Positions 5 to 43,138 of a stretch of 43,138 nucleotides of DNA are shown piece by piece (position 1 is the first letter of the stretch; each line of letters starts with the position of its first letter). The translations under genes and the position numbers were made by a program. The DNA is from Blautia sp. GTDB lineage: Bacteria > Bacillota > Clostridia > Lachnospirales > Lachnospiraceae. Under the pieces are notes generated by a model that was given only the letters and a program-made list of their open reading frames with translations, was not told the origin of the DNA and did no database searches. The DNA lies in assembly GCA_017459635.1 (NCBI GenBank), contig JAFUCO010000018.1:1-43138 (forward strand). The letters are read 5' to 3'.

Positions 5-138
5 GTAACTGTTCAGAACAGCCCGAAGCACTTGCTGCTGAGGGCGTACGAAAACGTAGATTTAGCAGGCAACGGGCGATTTTGCATGCGGAGCATCGCC
101 CGTTGCGTATCTGTTCAGGACGGGTTCTGAACAGATAC
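5..138 (+). mobile_element. IS66-type miniature element (MITE family 1), copy 1
   Basis: A 134-bp non-coding element with imperfect terminal inverted repeats. The left end reads GTAACTGTTCAGAAC; the complement of the right end reads GTATCTGTTCAGAAC. It is identical along its whole length to 26959-27092. The base run after its right end, GATCAATG (139-146), ends in the same AATG that precedes the left end at 1-4. This fits an 8-bp target duplication cut by the window edge. A GTAA end with an 8-bp duplication is the known signature of the IS66 family; the assignment is an inference. An internal inverted repeat around CGGGCGAT/ATCGCCCG can fold. No transposase is encoded, so it would need to be mobilised in trans. 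Confidence 0.85.
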
Positions 139-2062: not shown

Positions 2063-5000
2063 ATGGAAAAGAACAGCTTGAATATAAGCAACATGAGAAT
2101 AACACTCTTTTGGGCCTTTTTGTGGACTATGTCACTGCTATTTCTCTTTCCTGATGTTATACGAGCCGAAAGTGAAAGCAAAGTAATCCTGGAATCTAAC
2201 TGTTTTGCTGTTAACAAAATGGATAAGTTCAGTATTGAGGATGAATATGCAGTGGATGAATTCTCGTTTAACAGTGAACCACTGGGAGAATTTACAATAA
2301 CAGGCGTAATTGATAAAGAATCATCTATGTCTGATATGCCTGCTTTTATAACGGATGACTCTTTGGAAATTCATTATACTTATGCAGGAGAGCTGCACAC
2401 AGATAACCCGGATGAATGGCATATTTGCTCAGGTAATACCAACAAGATAGATGAACTTTCCCTGGATAATAATATCGGCGGCGGCACATTGATAATCCAG
2501 AAATCATCAGATGGAAAAACCTGGAAAAACACATCCGGGACGTCTTATGATTTTTTGAATAAGAATAAAGACAATCTTATAGTATATGAGATAAATGATA
2601 AGGAACGAATTGCAGGTACATATTTTCGTATTATGCTTGCATATGAGGTGAAAAAGAGAACACAGGAAAATTCTGATATATCATTGAACCTGTTTGGAGC
2701 GGTTGATGTGGATGTTCCAGTGGACATTCCATTTTATGACGCTGACAAATATGACTATTATGGATGCGTGCAGAAATATGAATTTTATGTGTGTTCGACT
2801 GAAAATCCTGTTGTTATAAAGGATATTATCTCCGGAGTTGATGTATCGAAAGAAAAAGCAGTAGATAAGGGCTTTCAGATAGATAAAAGAAAATCAAAAT
2901 CAAAGGTAAATGTTACTTTTGAGGGAGAATTAAAAGAAAACGTTAAGACTTATGAATCCTTTTATGAATCAGGGGAGTATAAGATAGATGTTGTTACACC
3001 TGTTGGTCAGTCATATCAGTATGTAATTACGATAGAAAACGGTCTTCAATTTGAAGAGCTGCATCCTACTGTATACGAAAACAAAAAGAAGAATGGGTAT
3101 AAGGAATCAGGAAAAGTAAATGATCGCGCGGTAACAGGAGTCGCGTCTTACTCTGTTTTGAAATTGGGATATGGTCTTGATGATACCTGTACAAAGGGGA
3201 CGTGTAATGATAAGAATAAAACCACGGCATATGGTATTACCGGGGAGAATGTATGCTTTTTCCTTAATCTGGAACAAAAGAAGAAGATGAAAGAGAATGG
3301 CTGGGTCACTAAGGCAGATTCATGGGGAAAAAACAAGAGTGAGAAGATTTACGATGTAGCAACTGGTGAGATAGAAACAGGAGCTATAATTGTACAGACA
3401 TCTGCTGATGGTAAGAATTGGACTAATCAGGAGAATCTGGGTTATGAATATGGACTATATAACACTGATTTTGAAAACTATTATGGAGCGGGCAGAGATG
3501 TATTGATTTATACACCTTCCGGTCAGGACATTATTAAAGGTGTTTACTTACGTGTGATATATGCCTATCTGGCTCATGGGACTGAAAAAGAAACAGATTA
3601 CAGATATCTTGAGAATTATACATTCTATCTCTGTAATAACGAACTTGGAGCTGTAACGATCCATAATCTGACTGCAGAAGAGCAAATGGCAGAAATACTT
3701 GAGGAAAAAAGTGATGCTTCTTCGGAAATTTATTCGGTCGCAGAAGATATGCTCTCAGGAAGCGGAACTGTAACCGGTTTCACAATTGATAACAGCCTTA
3801 ATCCGTTAGTAAATTACACAGTTGAGAAAGATGGAGAAGCTCTAAAGATCATCGGTGGGGAAAGCTTTGATAAGACTGGGCGATATGACATTAAGCTGAG
3901 TAATTTTCTTGGAAACGAAGAACAACGAACTATATATGTAGACCGTTTATCAACAGAGGAAGCCTATGATTTATATTTTGGAGATTCTTTTGTAGATGGC
4001 AAACGCATATATTCAGAAGAAAAGTATCCTGTGTATGTAGGGGGAGAGGTTTCTTATCATCTTAATCCAGTATCGGATTCATTTCTGCCATTAAATGGGA
4101 GAATTAAAAATCTGAATACCGCAGAGGAAACAGAAATAAAGACTGCAGGGGAAGAGATAAACAGAACACTGGTGACTCCGGGTTTATATGAAATAGTTCT
4201 GACTAATAATCCCTTCTCAGAGGGGGATGAACAATCAGGTGATTACAGAGTATTTACATTCCACTTTACTGTGATAGCAGAGGAAGATTGTCCCGGACCT
4301 GTTATCAATAAGAACAATCTGACAGCATTTAATATACAGAATGTATCAGGCTGCAATCCTCATGCATATGCGCTTATGTTTTCCAGCGCATCTAAAGGGA
4401 CCATAACACTTGTTTTTTCCTCTTATGAAGCAGCATATGATTATGCGGTAAAATATGAGAGCGGTACTGTTGAAAAACAGAAAGACGGCAGCTACCGTTA
4501 TACAGGCTCTTTCCTGGTAAACAAAAAAACTGAGTACAATTCGAACTGGGATGTAAATGATGCTATTGATTATTTTGCAAGATTGTCTGTGCAGGACTGG
4601 TACTTCGATATGTCCGATGAGTATACGTATTTGACAATGGAGGATTCCATTCTTAAATCACATGACAATTTGAGAAAACTGGAACTGGATAAAAGCGTGG
4701 TAATCTTCGCCTCGGAAGAGGACAGGAACACATTAGCAGATATCGAAGCACTTCCTATGATTAATTCTCTGCCATATGCATACCTTAAACCCGGGAAAGA
4801 AGGGGAGGTGGATAGAGGAAAGAACCACTTTGAGTTTATTAAAGACGAAAATGGATGGGATTCAGACAAAGTCACGATTATCGATCAGAAAGAAAATGAA
4901 TATCCCATCACCTATGATCAGGATGTTGATGAGCAGTTAAAAGCATATCAATGCATTCCCGGAATTGTTACTGTACATGAAGAAACGGTTTATGGGAATT

Positions 5001-5983
5001 CGGCGGACTACAAAGCCGTTTACATCCCGGAAGGAAAAAATCTTGCGTCTGTAGCAATTACATATATAGCAAATGGGGAAGAGAAAACAGAAATTCTGGA
5101 GCAGAAAAATGATGGATTAGAATTGACTGCAGACTCCTTCAGAATCATTTCTGTCCAGGATGAAACTGATCCATTTTCTGTAATAAAAATTACAAATGAA
5201 AAAGAAGAAATCGAATACTATACTCCGGGAACAATTACAGAGAAAGATTGGATTGATTCCGGAAGATATCAGCTGAAATTTATTAATCGTCTTGGCTATT
5301 TCTTTACTATTAAGGTTGTTATCGAGAATGGAAACGAAACCGATATTTCGTTTTCAGGAGAAGGGGCAGATTCGCTTCAGTCATTTACGGTTACTTTCGG
5401 TGAACAGAATATAAAACTTCCCGATATTGAGCGGTATGGATATGATTTCGCCGGATACAGGGATAGTTATGGGAATATGTATACCGATGAAATCGCTCAG
5501 ATATTATACAAGGGCTCGCTTGTACTGGAGACGGTTTGGGAACCGAAGATGGTAAAAATAGTTCTTGAAAGGCCGGATGGTGCAGTATATCGCACCGACG
5601 AAGCTTATTTCGGAACAGATTACCGAATAGGAGCCTACATATCCGAAAATAAAAATGAACATTTTAATGGCTGGATTTATGAAGGAGAATTGTATACAGA
5701 TACGATCCGGATCAATAAAGAAGACGATTATATCCTTCAGGTATCAATAGACGAAATCAGTTTTGATGAAGAACATGATGATCAGACAGAAGAGATTTTA
5801 AATGAGTCTGCCACAGAAAGCAGAGAGATTGAAGCTGAGAGTACAGAGGAAGATAACGAAAAAAGCATAAAGGAAACCGATAAAGGCGGTTTTGGAATTA
5901 TATTTGGTACTGCAGCAATAGTAGTTGCTTTGGCTGCCAGTGTGATCATATTTAAAAAGAAATCCATAAATAAAGAGGATTAA
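2063..5983 (+). CDS. Large cell-surface protein, membrane-anchored, repeat-containing
   Basis: A 1306-aa protein. The N-terminus is a signal peptide (hydrophobic core at about residues 12-32, possible cleavage after IRA). The C-terminus has an acidic stalk (about 1225-1270), one transmembrane helix (about 1274-1297) and a short lysine-rich tail, so it is anchored with the bulk outside. There is no LPxTG motif. Internally two copies of a domain are visible. One is centred on IIQKSSDGKTW (about 142) and the other on IIVQTSADGKNW (about 442); each is followed by a GxYxRxxxAY motif and a xYxFYxC motif. At least three segments share the pattern SGxYxIxxxNxxG, which suggests Ig-like modules. Residues about 1093-1170 resemble an InlB/Flg_new-type B repeat with GYxFAGYRD. 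It lies 14 nt upstream of the toxin-like gene, so co-transcription is expected. It could be an adhesin or a scaffold for toxin display. The function is inferred. Confidence 0.75.
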   Translation: MEKNSLNISNMRITLFWAFLWTMSLLFLFPDVIRAESESKVILESNCFAVNKMDKFSIEDEYAVDEFSFNSEPLGEFTITGVIDKESSMSDMPAFITDDSLEIHYTYAGELHTDNPDEWHICSGNTNKIDELSLDNNIGGGTLIIQKSSDGKTWKNTSGTSYDFLNKNKDNLIVYEINDKERIAGTYFRIMLAYEVKKRTQENSDISLNLFGAVDVDVPVDIPFYDADKYDYYGCVQKYEFYVCSTENPVVIKDIISGVDVSKEKAVDKGFQIDKRKSKSKVNVTFEGELKENVKTYESFYESGEYKIDVVTPVGQSYQYVITIENGLQFEELHPTVYENKKKNGYKESGKVNDRAVTGVASYSVLKLGYGLDDTCTKGTCNDKNKTTAYGITGENVCFFLNLEQKKKMKENGWVTKADSWGKNKSEKIYDVATGEIETGAIIVQTSADGKNWTNQENLGYEYGLYNTDFENYYGAGRDVLIYTPSGQDIIKGVYLRVIYAYLAHGTEKETDYRYLENYTFYLCNNELGAVTIHNLTAEEQMAEILEEKSDASSEIYSVAEDMLSGSGTVTGFTIDNSLNPLVNYTVEKDGEALKIIGGESFDKTGRYDIKLSNFLGNEEQRTIYVDRLSTEEAYDLYFGDSFVDGKRIYSEEKYPVYVGGEVSYHLNPVSDSFLPLNGRIKNLNTAEETEIKTAGEEINRTLVTPGLYEIVLTNNPFSEGDEQSGDYRVFTFHFTVIAEEDCPGPVINKNNLTAFNIQNVSGCNPHAYALMFSSASKGTITLVFSSYEAAYDYAVKYESGTVEKQKDGSYRYTGSFLVNKKTEYNSNWDVNDAIDYFARLSVQDWYFDMSDEYTYLTMEDSILKSHDNLRKLELDKSVVIFASEEDRNTLADIEALPMINSLPYAYLKPGKEGEVDRGKNHFEFIKDENGWDSDKVTIIDQKENEYPITYDQDVDEQLKAYQCIPGIVTVHEETVYGNSADYKAVYIPEGKNLASVAITYIANGEEKTEILEQKNDGLELTADSFRIISVQDETDPFSVIKITNEKEEIEYYTPGTITEKDWIDSGRYQLKFINRLGYFFTIKVVIENGNETDISFSGEGADSLQSFTVTFGEQNIKLPDIERYGYDFAGYRDSYGNMYTDEIAQILYKGSLVLETVWEPKMVKIVLERPDGAVYRTDEAYFGTDYRIGAYISENKNEHFNGWIYEGELYTDTIRINKEDDYILQVSIDEISFDEEHDDQTEEILNESATESREIEAESTEEDNEKSIKETDKGGFGIIFGTAAIVVALAASVIIFKKKSINKED

Positions 5984-5997
5984 GTCGGGAGGATAGC

Positions 5998-8217
5998 ATG
6001 AAGCGATTCATGAAAAAAACAGTTGCACTGGTGGCTTCGTGTGTGATAGTGGTAAATACGCTGGCAGGAAGTACAATGGTGTGTGCTGAAGAGATTCAGG
6101 CATGGGAATCCTATGTCGGAGACATGGATGCATTTGTATATGGGATGCTGGTTCGACAGTATGAGCTGTTTTATGATGTCTTTAGTGGCATTATGGTGCT
6201 TCCCGATGGAACGGAGATTTATGGTATTGCGTATACCGATTACGAGGGTGTATTTGAGACGGACGATAATAAAACCTGCTACTTTCCGTCAGGATTTATT
6301 CCTCTGATTGGTGAGGAAGCGATACCTTCTGACTTGCCCGATGGAGGTGTTGAAATAATCGACACTGATTATTACGATCCGAACAGTTCTTTTGTATATG
6401 CATATAAAACAGAGCCCTTCATGGAACATTGCGTCATATGGGATAAATATCTTCAGTATGGCATTGATGAAGAAGGGCTGATTACCTATGAATTCAGCCG
6501 TTACCAAAGAGGAAAATGTAACGAAGAGCTGGGTGTCTTGTATTCCTATGATGAAGGGAGAGTGCTATACAATCCGAATCTGGGAGAATATGTATCGGTT
6601 AATGGGGTTTCTTTGAATTTGGAAATAGATTATCGGGAACTTGAGGAGGCCATTGACCGTATCATACAAGAGCAGAATGCCAATTTCTGGACTGAAGAAA
6701 TAAAAACTTCAGTCTATGAATCTCAGGATGCATTAGTGTCTTTTATGCTCTCAATGCAAGAGGAACGTTTTTTCGGCTATGATGTAAAAGAGCTTGCTCA
6801 GATCATGTCGCAGATTGATCCTATGGAGTGTATCAGGATTACACCGGACGGATTGGTCATGGTAGATTTTGAGGAAGACTTCTGGAGGGATTCTAATAGT
6901 CTTGCAAAATGGCTGACCGGAGCCTGCTGCGCTATCACTATTGCCGGCTGCATAGCAGTTGACCTGTTCATTCCCGCATTAGCTCCTGTAAGTGGAGCCA
7001 TTATGGGGACAGCAACTGAAGTGTTTATGCAGGTGGTGCTGAATAATCAGGCTCTTGCAGATGTCAACTGGAAGAAAGTGGCTGTGGCTGCGGCTTCAGG
7101 TGCACTTATGTCATGGGCTTGTCCTATGGTTGCAGGAAGAGCAGCTGGTGACTCGGTAAAGATATTTGGCAAAATGATACAGAATGAGAAGCTTCTCGAA
7201 GGTATCGGAAAAGCAGCAGGTTATGCAGCTCTGTCGGCATCAAATTCTGTAGTGTCAGGTTTATCAAGCTACGGTATGACAATACTTGATGGAGGATCTC
7301 AAGAAGAGGCGATTGACGCTGCGCGTATGGGAGCTATGATGGCTGCCGTATGTACAATAGGTTCTTCAGCTTTATCAGAAGCCACGACTCCGGCTATACA
7401 AAAACTATTTGAGAATCATCCAAATAACTGGTTTGTAAAAGCCGTTAATGAAGCAGGAACTTTCATTGGAGAGCATCAAGTTCATTTGCCTGAAAAATTA
7501 GAAAAACTGGAGAGTATTCTTGTACCAAAGTCTATTCATCAGGCAACAAAAGCAGCAATAGACGAGATTGCTCAACAGAGAGGAGATATTGTAAAGAGAA
7601 TAAATGCATTGCAAAAAGATGAGTTCCCGGGATTTGAAAAAATAGATTCTAAAGGCAATGTTATATCGAAAGAAGAACTAGTAGAAAATGGAGGAAATTG
7701 TACCCTGAGAATAACAGAAGATTGTGACCCGGAAGTAAAAAAGATTTTTCAGAGACATAATGTAACGGAGATTCAAATTAAAGAAGGTGTTCCAGACTTA
7801 AAACCAATATCGGAATATTCTTTTGATGCGAATATTTCTTCTGACAGAAAAGCAAATATGAAAAAATTTCGTGAATATCTTGCAGATAGGTTTTCGAGAA
7901 AGCCAGAAGAGATGCCAGAGCGACTTAAAGCTGGAATTCTTGCCTCGAAAGGGATGGATCATCTTCCTGAAAATATAACCAAGACTGATATCCTCAAAGG
8001 TCTTTCTACTGCTTCCTTAACACTTCATGAGGGGGCAGATGGTATGGTACATATAATTGATACAACGGTTCACGAGACAATCCGTCATTCAGGAGGCGTT
8101 TCTTTAGCAAAACTAAATGATCTGCTTGCAGTGCTGAGAAAGGATTTCAAGAAAATATCAACATCAGCACCTCAGGTAATAGTAAGTACATATGTAGAAG
8201 AGGCTGTATATGAGTAA
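5998..8217 (+). CDS. Secreted polymorphic-toxin-like protein with C-terminal HNH/Endo VII (LHE) nuclease domain
   Basis: A 739-aa protein preceded by GGGAGGATAGC. Residues 1-30 form a classical Sec signal peptide ending near VCAEE. Residues about 35-300 are an unrecognised acidic, tyrosine-rich region. Residues about 300-470 are glycine/alanine-rich and hydrophobic, like the pre-toxin regions that carry or translocate toxins. The C-terminus matches the HNH/Endo VII toxin superfamily: VPDLKPISEYS, a DRKANMKKFREYLADRF helix, then LHE at 676-678 and a HETIRHSGGVS block with H692 and H697. In that family these His residues bind metal and cut DNA. The family is established knowledge; activity here is inferred. 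Related domains usually have WHH, LHH or WHE, so LHE is a variant. There is no LXG or WXG N-terminus, so a Sec rather than type VII route is suggested. The stop overlaps the next gene by 8 nt, as toxin-immunity pairs often do. Confidence 0.8.
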   Translation: MKRFMKKTVALVASCVIVVNTLAGSTMVCAEEIQAWESYVGDMDAFVYGMLVRQYELFYDVFSGIMVLPDGTEIYGIAYTDYEGVFETDDNKTCYFPSGFIPLIGEEAIPSDLPDGGVEIIDTDYYDPNSSFVYAYKTEPFMEHCVIWDKYLQYGIDEEGLITYEFSRYQRGKCNEELGVLYSYDEGRVLYNPNLGEYVSVNGVSLNLEIDYRELEEAIDRIIQEQNANFWTEEIKTSVYESQDALVSFMLSMQEERFFGYDVKELAQIMSQIDPMECIRITPDGLVMVDFEEDFWRDSNSLAKWLTGACCAITIAGCIAVDLFIPALAPVSGAIMGTATEVFMQVVLNNQALADVNWKKVAVAAASGALMSWACPMVAGRAAGDSVKIFGKMIQNEKLLEGIGKAAGYAALSASNSVVSGLSSYGMTILDGGSQEEAIDAARMGAMMAAVCTIGSSALSEATTPAIQKLFENHPNNWFVKAVNEAGTFIGEHQVHLPEKLEKLESILVPKSIHQATKAAIDEIAQQRGDIVKRINALQKDEFPGFEKIDSKGNVISKEELVENGGNCTLRITEDCDPEVKKIFQRHNVTEIQIKEGVPDLKPISEYSFDANISSDRKANMKKFREYLADRFSRKPEEMPERLKAGILASKGMDHLPENITKTDILKGLSTASLTLHEGADGMVHIIDTTVHETIRHSGGVSLAKLNDLLAVLRKDFKKISTSAPQVIVSTYVEEAVYE

Positions 8218-8695
8218 GAGCATAGAAGATATATTAAAAAAAGAAATGAAAAGTCTTCACAAAAAGCTTTCGAACACGGAGGAAGAAAGCAGTGAACTAT
8301 ATGATTTACTGGACGAGGCTCGATTTTTGGCAGAATGCAGAAAATGTGATCGAGAGAAAGAATACACAACACAGATATTTGAAAAGCGATACGGTAACTG
8401 CAAAAATGAGGAAGCTTGTATATTAGTTACTAAAACTGCAGATAAGATAAAAAAGGTAAATAATAAGGAGTATGTAATCAGGGAAGAGTATGCAAAGAAA
8501 GTGTTTGATGTTTTGAACAAGTATGAGCCTGTACTGTTGAATGTACGAGATCATTCGGAAAAGCAATGGAATGAGGTGTTTGGTTCAGAGTATTCTAATT
8601 TATCTGAAGACAGGAAAAGTGCACTAGTAGTCCTGGTGGAATGTGATGGAGGTATATATCGCTTGAAAAATATTGATCATGTTTTCGATGATTGA
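8210..8695 (+). CDS. Candidate immunity protein for the upstream toxin-like gene
   Basis: A 161-aa protein. The ATG at 8210 lies inside the last codons of the upstream gene (8-nt overlap), implying translational coupling. It has no signal peptide or membrane segment, so it is predicted to be cytosolic. It is rich in Lys and Glu and mostly helical, with a coiled-coil-like start (about residues 5-40), and ends in a more beta-like stretch (about 138-158). I do not recognise the family. The immunity role rests on position, size, cytosolic location and overlap with a nuclease-toxin gene; no sequence motif proves it. Codon use is AT-rich, as in the toxin gene. No terminator follows directly; the next 300 bases hold a dispersed repeat. 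Confidence 0.6.
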   Translation: MSKSIEDILKKEMKSLHKKLSNTEEESSELYDLLDEARFLAECRKCDREKEYTTQIFEKRYGNCKNEEACILVTKTADKIKKVNNKEYVIREEYAKKVFDVLNKYEPVLLNVRDHSEKQWNEVFGSEYSNLSEDRKSALVVLVECDGGIYRLKNIDHVFDD

Positions 8696-8730: not shown

Positions 8731-8930
8731 ATGGCATAAGAAAATGCGAGTATAGCGGCCCGTCCTTCGGCACTGTCTGTGCGGGGGCAGCGAGTTTGTC
8801 GAAGGAAGGGCTAATAGGCGACGCAGCATTTTCTCATGCCATATGCTTAAGTTCCGTACATATGGTCAGTCCTCCGCCTACGGCGTCCGCCTCGCCAAAA
8901 TCCATGCGTTGCCATATTCTTGTAGTGCAG
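8731..8930. repeat. Dispersed repeat family 3, copy 1
   Basis: Bases from about 8766 to 8930 match the window end (42995-43138) in inverted orientation. Shared blocks include GGGCTAATAGGCGACGCAGC and CGTACATATGGTCAGTCCTC. The copy also carries a near-perfect 17-bp inverted repeat, ATGGCATAAGAAAATGC (8732-8748) against 8825-8841. An inner stem pairs CCTTCG with CGAAGG. No reading frame in it looks real. It sits at the right edge of the AT-rich toxin block. Confidence 0.75.
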
Positions 8931-10386: not shown

Positions 10387-10577
10387 GTTACTGTTCATGG
10401 CCCAACTGCAAGCGGTTGGGTCTGAACCCTCCATTCGGAATCTCGCCATTGCAGGCTCCATCGCCGCTTCGCGGCTGGATTCCTCTTGAAGGACTCAGAC
10501 CCTGTAAGGAAATATACTCTGCTCCGTTCATACAGGCATGGCAGGGCAGAGTATATTTCCTTACGGCTGTGAGTAAC
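10387..10577. mobile_element. MITE family 2, degenerate copy
   Basis: About 191 bp similar along its length to 29066-29259. Shared blocks include CTCCATTCGGAATCTCGCC, GGACTCAGACCCTGTAAGG and GTAAGGAAATATACTCTGC. The left end reads GTTACTGTTCATGG and the right end GGCTGTGAGTAAC, which are imperfect inverted repeats. No target duplication is visible. A nested stem (GCAGAGTATATTTCC against GGAAATATACTCTGC) lies near the right end. Reading frames across it are conceptual only. Confidence 0.75.
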
Positions 10578-10608
10578 AACAAATTAAAAATTATGCCCAT
10601 GAGTAAGC

Positions 10609-14508: not shown

Positions 14509-14735
14509 CATGCGCGGATGCTCCTGATGGCAGCGGGAGGACATGTGCAGATGCACCTGATGGCAGCAGGAGGACATGTGCAGATACAACTGATGGCAGC
14601 AGGAGGACATGCGCAGATGCAACTGATGGCAATAGGAAGACATGCGTGGATGCACCTGATGGCAGCAGGAGGACATGCGCGGATACACCTGATGGCAGCA
14701 GGAGGACATGCGCGGATGCACTTGCCGGCAGACGG
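14509..14735. repeat. 33-bp tandem repeat array between permease and ATPase genes
   Basis: Six complete 33-base units start at 14509, 14542, 14575, 14608, 14641 and 14674, and a partial seventh starts at 14707. The consensus core is CTGATGGCAGCAGGAGGACA. Each unit contains AGGAGG followed by ATG. Being 11 codons long, the array keeps one frame open from 14476 to 14766. It lies within a co-directional operon and has no spacers, so it is not a CRISPR array. The real ATPase start at 14771 has its own AAGGAG site just after the array. Confidence 0.9.
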
Positions 14736-22142: not shown

Positions 22143-23020
22143 TGGAAAAGAATACGGCTTCCATGAAGAAACGTCAGAAGATAGGAAATTTTTTTACATA
22201 TGTCGTATTGATAATCATCAGCATAATATGGCTGTTTCCATTTTTCGGACTGCTCATGCAGAGCTTCAGGTCGTATGACCCGGCGGTGGAGTATGGCGGA
22301 ATGGTCGACTATATAATCCCGAAAACTTTCTCGCTGGATAACTACAGATTCCTGTTTTCAGGACAGACAAATTTCTGGCGCTGGTATGGAAACACTCTGA
22401 TCATAGCGGTGAGCGTATCAATACTGCAGACGATCATTATCCTGTGCGTCAGCTATGCGCTTTCAAGGATGCGCTTCAGGGGCAGGACCTTCCTTATGAG
22501 GAGCTGGCTGATACTTGGCATGTTCCCTGGTTTCCTTACAATGATCTGCCTTTATTTCCTGCTCAGCACAATGGGCCTTACACAGAGCGGCGCAGTTCCC
22601 GGACTCATTCTGGTATCGGTGGCCAGCTCGGGCATGGGATATTATGTGTGTAAAGGATATTTTGATACTCTTCCCATAGCGCTCGACGAGGCTGCCAGGA
22701 TAGACGGGGCTTCACGCGCAAGGATATTCTTTATTATGACAATCCCGCTCAGCAAGCCGATAATCATATATACCGCACTGGTCGCGTTCATGGCGCCCTG
22801 GTGCGATTATGTGTTTGCTTCGTACGTGGCTTTTGGCGAAGACAAGAGCTACAACGTAGCCGTGGCTATGACAAGATGGGTGTGGACAAACGACTATCAG
22901 GGATACTTTACAAGGTTCTGCGCCGGAGGAATCCTGATAGCAGTACCGGTGACACTGCTGTTCATGTTCCTCCAGAAGTATTACGTGGAAGGAGTAACAG
23001 GAGGCGCGGTCAAAGGATAA
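22142..23020 (+). CDS. Sugar ABC transporter permease, MalG-like
   Basis: A 292-aa membrane protein. Its ATG shares one base with the stop of the MalF-like gene, so the two are translationally coupled. Six helices are seen. The EAA loop LDEAARIDGASRARIFFIMT lies at about 180-199. WLFPFFGLLMQSFR near residue 30 is the usual first helix. An internal piece of this gene (about 22215-22340) is duplicated at 29025-29357 in a chimeric remnant. No terminator is evident directly after it; the DHH gene starts 126 bases on with its own strong ribosome site. Confidence 0.9.
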   Translation: MEKNTASMKKRQKIGNFFTYVVLIIISIIWLFPFFGLLMQSFRSYDPAVEYGGMVDYIIPKTFSLDNYRFLFSGQTNFWRWYGNTLIIAVSVSILQTIIILCVSYALSRMRFRGRTFLMRSWLILGMFPGFLTMICLYFLLSTMGLTQSGAVPGLILVSVASSGMGYYVCKGYFDTLPIALDEAARIDGASRARIFFIMTIPLSKPIIIYTALVAFMAPWCDYVFASYVAFGEDKSYNVAVAMTRWVWTNDYQGYFTRFCAGGILIAVPVTLLFMFLQKYYVEGVTGGAVKG

Positions 23021-26958: not shown

Positions 26959-27092
26959 GTAACTGTTCAGAACAGCCCGAAGCACTTGCTGCTGAGGGCG
27001 TACGAAAACGTAGATTTAGCAGGCAACGGGCGATTTTGCATGCGGAGCATCGCCCGTTGCGTATCTGTTCAGGACGGGTTCTGAACAGATAC
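26959..27092 (-). mobile_element. IS66-type miniature element (MITE family 1), copy 2
   Basis: Identical over 134 bp to 5-138. It is flanked by a perfect 8-bp direct repeat, ATGTATTA (26951-26958 and 27093-27100), a clean target-site duplication. The stop codon of the isomerase gene lies within the right-hand copy of the duplication (27098-27100). This is direct evidence of insertion into an operon. Identity to copy 1 points to recent movement. Confidence 0.92.
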
Positions 27093-29024: not shown

Positions 29025-29416
29025 CTTAACAATCAAAAGCATAATATGGCTGTTTCCATTTTTAGGTTACTATTCACGGTCCAGCCGCAAGCGGCTGGGT
29101 CTGAGTCCTCCATTCGGAATCTCGCCCTTACGGGCTTCTTCGCCGTTTCACGGCTGGATTCCTCATGAAGGGCTCAGACCCTGTAAGGAAATATACTCTG
29201 CTCTGCTCATGCAAGCATGGCAGAGCAGAGTATATTTACTTACGGCCGTGAATAGTAACATTTTTCGGACTGCTCATGCAGAGCTTCAGGTCGTATGACC
29301 CGGCGGTGGAGTATGGCGGAATGGTCGACTATATGATCCCGAAAACTTTCTCGCTGGACAATGATAAAGTTGACGAACTTCTGCCGGATATAATAAAAGC
29401 ACTTAACGAAGCGTAA
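29025..29416 (+). pseudogene. Chimeric remnant: malG fragment joined to the DHH gene 3' end
   Basis: Bases 29025-29063 and 29260-29357 match the MalG-like gene (about 22210-22340) nearly base for base. From 29353 on, the sequence matches the end of the DHH gene (24012-24070), then diverges to code ALNEA and stop. The switch occurs at GCTGGAYAA, a motif present in both parent genes in the same codon phase, so the join is in frame (FSLDNDKVDELL). About 1.7 kb between the parents is missing. A MITE family 2 element interrupts the malG part. No start codon or ribosome site remains. This is a dead copy that also forms a direct repeat with the DHH 3' end across the minus-strand sugar island. Confidence 0.85.
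29066..29259. mobile_element. MITE family 2, intact copy inside the malG remnant
   Basis: A 194-bp element with 14-bp perfect terminal inverted repeats, GTTACTATTCACGG and CCGTGAATAGTAAC. The flanks ATTTTTAG (29058-29065) and ATTTTTCG (29260-29267) are an 8-bp target duplication with one mismatch. The intact malG gene at 22235 has the single unduplicated ATTTTTCG, so the pre-insertion site is known. An internal long stem pairs GGAAATATACTCTGCTCTGC with a matching right arm. It encodes no transposase. Confidence 0.9.
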
Positions 29417-42994: not shown

Positions 42995-43138
42995 GCCGCA
43001 TAGATTTTGGCGGGTCGGACGCCGTAGGGGGAGGACTGACCATATGTACGGAACCGCGGCCTCCGGCAGAGAAAATGCTGCGTCGCCTATTAGCCCTTCC
43101 TTCGGCAAACTCGCAAAAACCGCTCAGACAGTGCCGAA
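42995..43138 (-). repeat. Dispersed repeat family 3, copy 2 (inverted, cut by the window end)
   Basis: Read on the minus strand this matches 8766-8930, including TTCGGCACTGTCTG, GGGCTAATAGGCGACGCAGC and TCCGTACATATGGTCAGTCC. It is cut at 43138, so its full length is unknown. Confidence 0.8.

What the first reader, a model, noticed from the sequence alone, without database searches (positions are those of the whole stretch)
2063..8695. Sec-routed nuclease-toxin locus with a large membrane-anchored partner and overlapping immunity candidate
Three genes sit 14 nt apart and overlapping by 8 nt. The middle protein has a plain signal peptide, a hydrophobic pre-toxin-like region and a C-terminal HNH/Endo VII-type domain. 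It has no LXG/WXG or two-partner secretion features, unlike most known Gram-positive polymorphic toxins. The first gene encodes a 1306-aa surface protein with duplicated domains that could display, store or deliver the toxin. The block is AT-rich and bounded by dispersed repeats, as expected for an acquired contact-toxin island.
Basis: partly seen in the sequence, partly recalled or inferred. Interest (0 to 1): 0.78.

Follow-up and report, generated by a model that had tools for sequence, protein, structure and literature searches.

The report
Surface-partnered bacterial nuclease toxin module
Three neighbouring genes in a gut bacterium appear to make a large cell-surface protein, an exported DNA-cutting toxin and a protective protein, and relatives of this set occur in the same order in many gut and rumen bacteria, which points to a little-known way in which such bacteria may attack their neighbours.

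Summary
In detail: three co-directional ORFs (2063-5983, 5998-8217, 8210-8695), 14-nt gap, 8-nt overlap, low GC, a duplicated domain in the large protein, and a sub-threshold HNH-type (WHH) match at the toxin's C-terminus. The repeats are general ones, not island borders. Another Lachnospiraceae genus has the three genes in order; its toxin passes Pfam's WHH cut-off and has a lipobox. The surface domain recurs in shorter proteins: in 76 of 80 public loci (best 80 of 123) such a gene lies immediately upstream of a Sec-exported, mostly lipoprotein, toxin; the other four toxins start within 875 nt of a contig end. Those toxins carry LHH nucleases (a biased sample), mostly followed by SUKH genes. 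Hosts are Bacillota, Actinomycetota and one Chloroflexota species. Best reading: a Gram-positive, T7SS-independent polymorphic-toxin module in which a surface protein displays a Sec-exported nuclease; the window is a divergent, enlarged version. Gene order resembles MafA-MafB-MafI without detected homology; nine literature searches found no description. Contact, nuclease activity and immunity are inferred. The window toxin's trunk homology is weak, it lacks a clear lipobox, and its immunity candidate is not SUKH.

The parts
2063..5983 (+). Large surface protein, 1306 aa: signal peptide (hydrophobic residues 11-33), two copies of a conserved domain (residues ~36-248 and ~329-528), further regions shared only with the G189 homologue, C-terminal membrane anchor (residues ~1273-1303) with a Lys-rich tail
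   Evidence: ORF; profile of 81 relatives hits it at E 3.1e-35; hydrophobic segments; G189 homologue 38% identity over residues 67-1173; no Pfam/NCBIfam match above cut-off
2168..2806 (+). First copy of the conserved surface domain (residues ~36-248)
   Evidence: 93.5 bits, i-Evalue 7e-28
3047..3646 (+). Second copy of the conserved surface domain (residues ~329-528)
   Evidence: 34.1 bits, i-Evalue 6.6e-10; BLASTP E 3e-8
5998..8217 (+). Exported toxin candidate, 739 aa: signal peptide (judged SPase I type, cleavage probably after VCA near residue 30), unknown N-terminal domain, trunk, hydrophobic region, C-terminal WHH-like nuclease domain
   Evidence: Pfam WHH E 2.3e-4, sub-threshold; G189 homologue 33% identity over 34-723
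6661..6882 (+). Trunk segment (residues ~222-295) that resembles the conserved trunk of the widespread lipoprotein toxins
   Evidence: hhalign probability 73.9, E 2.9e-5; control against the surface protein probability 0.1, E 0.68. Weak: the full-length HMM search misses the window protein
6898..7134 (+). Hydrophobic pre-toxin region (residues ~301-379)
   Evidence: Kyte-Doolittle scan; the short-type toxin L071 has a hydrophobic stretch at residues ~196-234, between trunk and nuclease
8023..8112 (+). HNH/WHH-like core (residues ~676-705): LHE...HIID..VHE.IRHSGG
   Evidence: H677-E678, V691-H692-E693, R696-H697 and G699-G700 are identical in G189; the family's HH is HE here
8210..8695 (+). Immunity candidate, 161 aa, no hydrophobic segment; cysteines C43, C46 and C64 conserved in the G189 homologue
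   Evidence: G189 homologue 26% identity, E 1.9e-11; no curated family; not SUKH-like

Best explanation
A three-gene antibacterial polymorphic-toxin module. Step 1 (shown by sequence): the genes are packed for co-translation. Step 2 (predicted from sequence): the first protein is exported by Sec and anchored by its C-terminal membrane helix, so its repeated domains face outwards. Step 3 (predicted): the toxin is exported by Sec too; in most relatives it is lipid-anchored to the same membrane, while in this window it has an ordinary signal peptide and is probably held by the partner. Step 4 (inferred from near-universal pairing and matching loss of anchors): the partner displays or guides the toxin on the producer's surface. 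Step 5 (inferred): at contact with another cell, most likely Gram-positive, the trunk and hydrophobic region carry the C-terminal HNH-type nuclease across the target membrane, where it cuts DNA. Step 6 (inferred from position, lack of an export signal, and the SUKH proteins in that position in relatives): the 161-aa protein neutralises the nuclease in producer and kin.
For: Same three genes in the same order in another genus. Of 13 family genomes with hits to the surface domain, 2 are cut by a contig edge and in the other 11 the next gene is an exported protein: nine with the trunk, two of the window type. With a toxin query, 76 of 80 public loci have the surface gene immediately upstream, 31 of 76 with a 4-nt overlap, none with a gap above 44 nt; of the 4 others, L081, L084 and L110 start within 121 nt of the contig end and L096 at nt 875, and L084 and L096 still show a membrane-anchor-like tail in front. 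C-termini on the trunk vary: LHH in 7 of 10 toxins scanned from whole-genome hits, an unnamed RPD...EVK domain in 2 genomes, none in 2. SUKH_5 in 64 of 73 downstream small proteins, UPF0167 in 4. After two corrections by eye, the 9 toxins without a lipobox all have a partner without a C-terminal membrane helix, while 57 of 67 partners of lipobox toxins have one. R. albus 7 plasmid: hypothetical protein, HNH/ENDO VII nuclease, SMI1/KNR4 in that order, 2-6 kb from integrase and mobility genes.
Against: No experiment. WHH in the window is below the Pfam cut-off and the HH is HE. Homology of the window toxin's trunk to the widespread trunk is weak. Window-type loci are rare: whole-length surface matches in 2 of 397 family genomes, 1 of 51 in the genus, 1 of 22 in G189's genus. 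The 161-aa protein is not SUKH. Before the corrections by eye the anchor table was 55/10/2/9 (Fisher 2.7e-5), and it is not significant on independent tree pairs; the window itself is an exception (helix, no clear lipobox). Trunk and immunity distances correlate more strongly (0.41) than nuclease domain and immunity (0.29), not what simple cassette swapping predicts. Some loci show no immunity candidate. In Neisseria MafA, the positional analogue, was not needed for secretion.
Confidence: 0.72

Rival explanations
1. An exported nuclease for feeding on or clearing extracellular DNA, with the small protein only protecting the producer from unexported enzyme.
For: Signal peptide and, in relatives, membrane attachment would suit a surface nuclease.
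Against: LHH and WHH domains are said to have arisen in and stayed largely restricted to polymorphic toxins (Zhang 2012, passages); trunk with different C-termini and a hydrophobic region; SUKH partners.
Confidence: 0.09
2. The toxin is meant for eukaryotic cells (protozoa or gut epithelium) and the small gene is incidental.
For: Many hits come from rumen and gut genomes (titles), where protozoa abound.
Against: An effector against eukaryotes needs no bacterial immunity gene, yet a SUKH or UPF0167 gene follows in most loci scanned.
Confidence: 0.05
3. The window copy is a decaying or repurposed remnant: HE instead of HH, no clear lipobox, enlarged partner, rare.
For: Sub-threshold WHH match; surface gene absent from the 50 other same-genus genomes searched.
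Against: All three frames are open; the HE and VHE..RH.GG residues are the same in G189 although the surrounding region is poorly conserved, which suggests selection.
Confidence: 0.09
4. The large surface protein is an unrelated adhesin that merely sits next to a toxin gene.
For: Its fold is unknown and no solved structure matches at a meaningful E-value.
Against: Immediate upstream pairing in 76 of 80 loci, the remaining four near contig ends, and correlated distances with the trunk (Mantel r 0.31, 0 of 2000 permutations as high).
Confidence: 0.05

Closest known systems
MafA-MafB-MafI of Neisseria (Zhang 2012 PMC3482391 and PMC4287609, passages seen)
   Same: Gene order surface protein, Sec-exported polymorphic toxin, immunity; conserved N-terminal domain with variable C-terminal toxins; partner proposed (Zhang 2012) to hold the toxin on the surface
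   Different: No MafB-N/DUF1020 or MafA match in the Pfam scans; Gram-positive hosts; here the toxin is usually the lipoprotein and the partner usually has a transmembrane anchor; Maf genes are reported as restricted to Neisseria; and deletion of mafA did not prevent MafB secretion in N. cinerea
SitA lipoprotein toxins of myxobacteria (PMC8546572, abstract and outline seen)
   Same: Lipoprotein toxins with N-terminal escort domains and C-terminal nucleases that act in the cytoplasm of kin that lack immunity
   Different: SitA travels by outer-membrane exchange, which a host with one membrane cannot do; sequence homology was not tested
LXG/T7SSb toxins of Bacillota (search listings; otherwise recalled)
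   Same: Polymorphic antibacterial toxins of Gram-positive bacteria, some with nuclease C-termini
   Different: No LXG or WXG domain in the Pfam scans of the window toxin or relatives; a Sec signal peptide instead
Tox-WHH and Tox-LHH nucleases with SUKH immunity (Zhang 2012 tables, passages seen)
   Same: Nuclease and immunity families; both nucleases are listed there also for T2SS/Sec-exported toxins
   Different: The trunk and the surface partner are not among the leader or pre-toxin domains in the passages seen (the whole paper was not read)

Membership tests
Bacterial polymorphic toxin system | N-terminal export signal on the toxin | tested here: met
   Signal peptide in the window, lipobox in G189; lipobox in 70 of 79 relatives with a visible N-terminus, 68 by script plus 2 by eye
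Bacterial polymorphic toxin system | C-terminal domain of a known toxin family | tested here: inconclusive
   Window: WHH below cut-off. G189: above cut-off. Short-type relatives: LHH in 73 of 73 scanned, of 80 loci found with an LHH-containing query
Bacterial polymorphic toxin system | Conserved trunk with exchangeable C-termini | tested here: met
   Short type only: LHH, an unnamed RPD...EVK domain and no recognisable toxin domain on one trunk. The window type has two known members, both WHH-like
Bacterial polymorphic toxin system | Immunity gene directly downstream that protects | not testable with these tools
   A small gene is in place and conserved in G189; SUKH in relatives; protection needs an experiment
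Tox-WHH | Motifs WHH, L, H, HxG (Zhang 2012 table) | tested here: not met
   H692 and H697-S-G699 present, but WHH is LHE in the window and FHE in G189. Probably works like it; strict membership not claimed
MafB toxin | MafB-N (DUF1020) domain and MafA homologue | tested here: not met
   No such match in the Pfam scans
LXG/WXG T7SS effector | N-terminal LXG or WXG domain | tested here: not met
   No such match in the scans
SUKH immunity | SMI1/KNR4 profile match by the 161-aa protein | tested here: not met
   No Pfam match; hhalign to 73 downstream proteins, probability 1.7
Surface-protein/lipoprotein-toxin module described here | Surface protein with the shared N-terminal domain upstream | tested here: met
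   Profile E 3.1e-35, two copies; hhalign probability 99.8, E 1.7e-27
Surface-protein/lipoprotein-toxin module described here | Toxin trunk homologous to the widespread trunk | tested here: inconclusive
   hhalign probability 41.5 and 73.9; the enriched HMM misses the window and gives G189 E 1e-4

The most novel reading that the evidence does not exclude
The surface protein is a dedicated, T7SS-independent delivery device of Gram-positive bacteria: a displayed partner that hands a Sec-exported or lipid-anchored toxin to a neighbouring cell, with the toxin's own trunk crossing the target membrane. It would be a separate trafficking class of polymorphic toxins, spread across Bacillota, Actinomycetota and at least one Chloroflexota species of gut, rumen and other anaerobic communities.
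Probability: 0.4. Interest if true: 0.85.

Novelty: new variant of a known kind. Interest (0 to 1): 0.66.

Why it matters
Known contact-dependent protein weapons of Gram-positive bacteria centre on the type VII system and on Rhs/WapA proteins (search listings, and recall). Lachnospiraceae, Ruminococcus and Bifidobacterium are leading members of gut and rumen communities, and how they fight neighbours is, to my knowledge, poorly known. A conserved Sec/lipoprotein module with a near-constant surface partner and a recognisable immunity gene would give a directly testable system, with named carriers to work on (Ruminococcus albus 7, Pseudobutyrivibrio sp. YE44, Bifidobacterium moukalabense).

Tried and rejected
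Relatives in viral contigs with the window-type toxin and surface alignments: none; the short-type toxin gave 4 loci, and the trunk alone the same 4 contigs. Window toxin in plasmids: none. Solved structures by sequence for toxin, surface protein, immunity candidate and the two short-type alignments: nothing at a meaningful E-value; weak hits (Rhs chain 8bd1 E 1.4, Pyocin S8 E 0.18) were not used. A defence-system reading was dropped: only a KwaB hit at E 3.4e-4 to the 161-aa protein, out of keeping with a signal-peptide toxin. A phage tape-measure hit (PHROGs, E 0.0013) was taken as a hydrophobic/low-complexity match. Homology of the 161-aa protein to SUKH was tested and not found. An empty-site comparison in the genus failed: the downstream phosphoglycerate-mutase-like gene is in 44 of 60 genomes, but neither upstream ORF of the window occurs in the 29 short loci examined. 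An order-level search with the short-type toxin matched 25 of 295 genomes, of which by the matched ranges 13 are signal-peptide-only, 7 nuclease-only and 5 trunk matches; only the 5 were counted. A trunk-only search at class level matched 1 of 391, so the module is patchy. The larger stretches fetched were not read further. The 'phages' collection was not searched.
Full report
What is there. Its family is Lachnospiraceae, inferred because a same-family contig (G153:C8, 98,783 bases) equals in length NZ_FMXT01000008.1 of Pseudobutyrivibrio sp. YE44. The three ORFs are as described. The block has 38.7% GC against 48.4% downstream.

The toxin candidate. The 739-aa protein has a signal peptide. 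A VASC string at residues 13-16 could be read as a lipobox, but the hydrophobic stretch runs on past it and ends VCA-EE, so I take it as an ordinary signal peptide (sequence, hydrophobicity; judgement). Hydrophobic stretches lie at 301-339 and 361-379. Residues 680-705 match Pfam WHH at E 2.3e-4, 21.3 bits, below the cut-off of 25.1. The homologue in G189 gives 26.1 bits full length and 28.6 for the domain alone, above the cut-off, with a second, sub-threshold match to Colicin-DNase. The two share H-E, V-H-E and R-H-x-G-G. WHH toxins are defined by WHH, L, H, HxG (Zhang 2012, passages): here the first motif is LHE or FHE, so this is a WHH-like nuclease rather than a strict member.

The same locus elsewhere. 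Among 200 family genomes G189, of another genus, carries all three genes in order: surface 38% identity over residues 67-1173, toxin 33% over 34-723, small protein 26% over 14-154. The one TAG that one search counts in the small gene fits its normal end; the ORF of 149 aa is open. The G189 toxin has the lipobox LLSGC. Within the window's genus the surface gene was found only in the window's genome (1 of 51), and in G189's genus only in G189 (1 of 22).

The wider family. A profile of the two surface proteins matched 15 of 397 family genomes. Two of them (G075, G004) match only a C-terminal stretch and were dropped. The other 13 include the window and G189; the rest have the N-terminal domain in proteins of about 570-700 aa where complete (one split in two ORFs, one cut at 198 aa). 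Of the 13, G121 and G417 are cut by a contig edge. In the other 11 the next gene encodes an exported protein: the two window-type toxins, and nine with a shared trunk, seven of which carry a Pfam LHH nuclease, one (G318) an unnamed C-terminus and one (G347) a shortened product without a recognisable toxin domain. Homology of the surface proteins is strong: hhalign probability 99.8, E 1.7e-27, and an HMM of 81 of them finds the window protein at E 3.1e-35 with the domain twice, where the best of 1000 shuffled decoys has E 0.052.

Linkage count. One pattern-based scan of 84,980 species genomes with the short-type toxin alignment gave 123 relatives, of which the best 80 were kept. All 80 hold an ORF that matches the trunk profile, and 76 have the surface gene immediately upstream; the gap is never above 44 nt and is exactly -4 in 31 of 76, while larger overlaps reflect the choice of the longest ORF. 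Of the four others, three toxin ORFs begin within 121 nt of the contig end and one at nt 875; L084 and L096 still show a hydrophobic, Lys/Arg-rich tail of an upstream frame. Because the query held an LHH domain, LHH in 73 of the 73 aligned toxins is a biased result. Different C-termini come from other searches: an RPD...EVK domain in G318 and G495, which resembles restriction-endonuclease-fold toxins by eye only (no informative Pfam match), and trunks of 283-285 aa that end where the toxin domain would begin in G598 and G482. Downstream small ORFs were picked in 73 of 80 loci; 64 match SUKH_5 and 4 match UPF0167 (recalled as the family of the colicin E2 tolerance protein CbrC). Two loci not picked or picked wrongly by that rule (L089, L122) do hold a SUKH-like frame by eye; L098, L129, L136 and L150 show no clear candidate.

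Distribution. Record titles include Bifidobacterium moukalabense (Actinomycetota), Flexilinea flocculi (Chloroflexota, the only one of its phylum in the list), Anaerococcus degeneri, Holdemanella porci, Ruminococcus albus, several coriobacterial MAGs and many Lachnospiraceae; a Candidatus Hydrogenedens MAG (L106) may be mis-binned. On the R. albus 7 plasmid pRUMAL01 the genes are annotated hypothetical protein, HNH/ENDO VII family nuclease and SMI1/KNR4, 2-6 kb from an integrase and a mobility-associated gene. At order level 5 of 295 genomes had trunk-covering matches (G153, G594, G495, G598, G482), and in the four read a surface-type frame stands upstream. A class-level sample matched 1 of 391, so carriage is patchy.

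Evidence that the two exported proteins act together. A script called lipobox and C-terminal membrane helix: of 76 loci with both partners visible, 55 had both, 10 a lipobox only, 9 neither and 2 a helix only (Fisher 2.7e-5). The two exceptions (L098 with LTGC, L119 with LDGC) are lipobox-like by eye; with these corrected the table is 57, 10, 9 and 0 (Fisher 6e-7). L102 (IMSC) is doubtful in the other direction and has no helix. The nine anchorless toxins fall in about four places on the trunk tree by eye, but independent pairs on supported branches (3-4, before the correction) are too few for significance. The window does not fit the pattern: helix present, lipobox doubtful. Distance matrices of 60 loci: trunk-surface r 0.31 (0 of 2000 permutations as high), trunk-immunity 0.41 (0), nuclease-immunity 0.29 (0), surface-immunity 0.27 (1), trunk-nuclease 0.18 (2), nuclease-surface 0.09 (92). 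Surface and trunk distances go together and the nuclease domain least with the surface; the strong trunk-immunity link is unexplained.

Does the window toxin share the trunk? Only weakly: hhalign probability 41.5 with the nine-sequence alignment, 73.9 (E 2.9e-5, 72 columns) with the trunk-only alignment, 0.1 in a control; the enriched HMM misses the window and finds G189 at E 1e-4, partly on the signal peptide. I therefore claim homology of the surface partner, and for the trunk analogy with possible distant homology.

Known or new. Passages of Zhang 2012 list Tox-WHH and Tox-LHH with SUKH, also for Sec/T2SS-exported toxins, and describe MafA-MafB. Passages of the MafB paper give the same gene order but report that MafB is still secreted without MafA, a caution for the delivery role suggested here. 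SitA (abstract) is a lipoprotein toxin family of Gram-negative hosts. No informative family match was found in what was scanned: window proteins in Pfam, NCBIfam, PHROGs and PADLOC; 73 short-type toxins in Pfam and NCBIfam, where outside LHH only TrsH (5 members) and three lipoprotein models (1-2 members each) match weakly; six surface proteins in Pfam; L071 toxin and surface protein in PHROGs and PADLOC. Short-type surface proteins were not scanned against NCBIfam. Nine literature searches found no description of the module in their listings; the library holds only open-licence papers, so this is not proof.

Shown and inferred. Shown: gene order, linkage, domain duplication, toxin and immunity families in relatives. 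Predicted from sequence: export signals and anchors. Inferred: display, contact dependence, membrane crossing, DNA cleavage, protection. On rechecking, no stated odds were changed.

Noticed in passing
window 14509-14721: About 6.5 imperfect copies of a 33-nt unit (CATGCGCGGATGCACCTGATGGCAGCAGGAGGA) lie between the end of an ABC-permease-like ORF and an ABC-ATPase-like ORF; most copies carry, by eye, a ribosome-binding-site-like GGAGGA and an ATG.
   Followed up: partly
window 5-138 and 26959-27092; 8766-8908 and 42997-43138; 10387-10581 and 29066-29260; 22239-22341 and 29259-29361: Several families of dispersed repeats within 43 kb, some at the contig ends; no Rfam family reaches its gathering score in the window.
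   Followed up: no
L016 6770-8728 (same as L108): The surface gene in this horse-gut MAG is split into two ORFs, while the toxin and SUKH-like frames are open.
   Followed up: no
L122 5836-7089: Toxin reading frame interrupted between trunk and LHH domain, with a SUKH-like frame further down.
   Followed up: no
L044, L045 (G598, G482): Surface-type and trunk proteins paired without a recognisable C-terminal toxin domain, and no small immunity-like frame in the 1.3-1.5 kb seen downstream.
   Followed up: no
L078, L085, L134, L147: A Cys-rich protein stands where SUKH usually is; these four are, by eye, probably the four UPF0167 matches counted (sequences), a possible second immunity type.
   Followed up: partly
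L067-L070: Four IMG/VR 'viral' contigs carry the surface and toxin genes; L069 and L070 also a SUKH-like frame and L069 a DNA-methyltransferase-like frame, by eye.
   Followed up: partly
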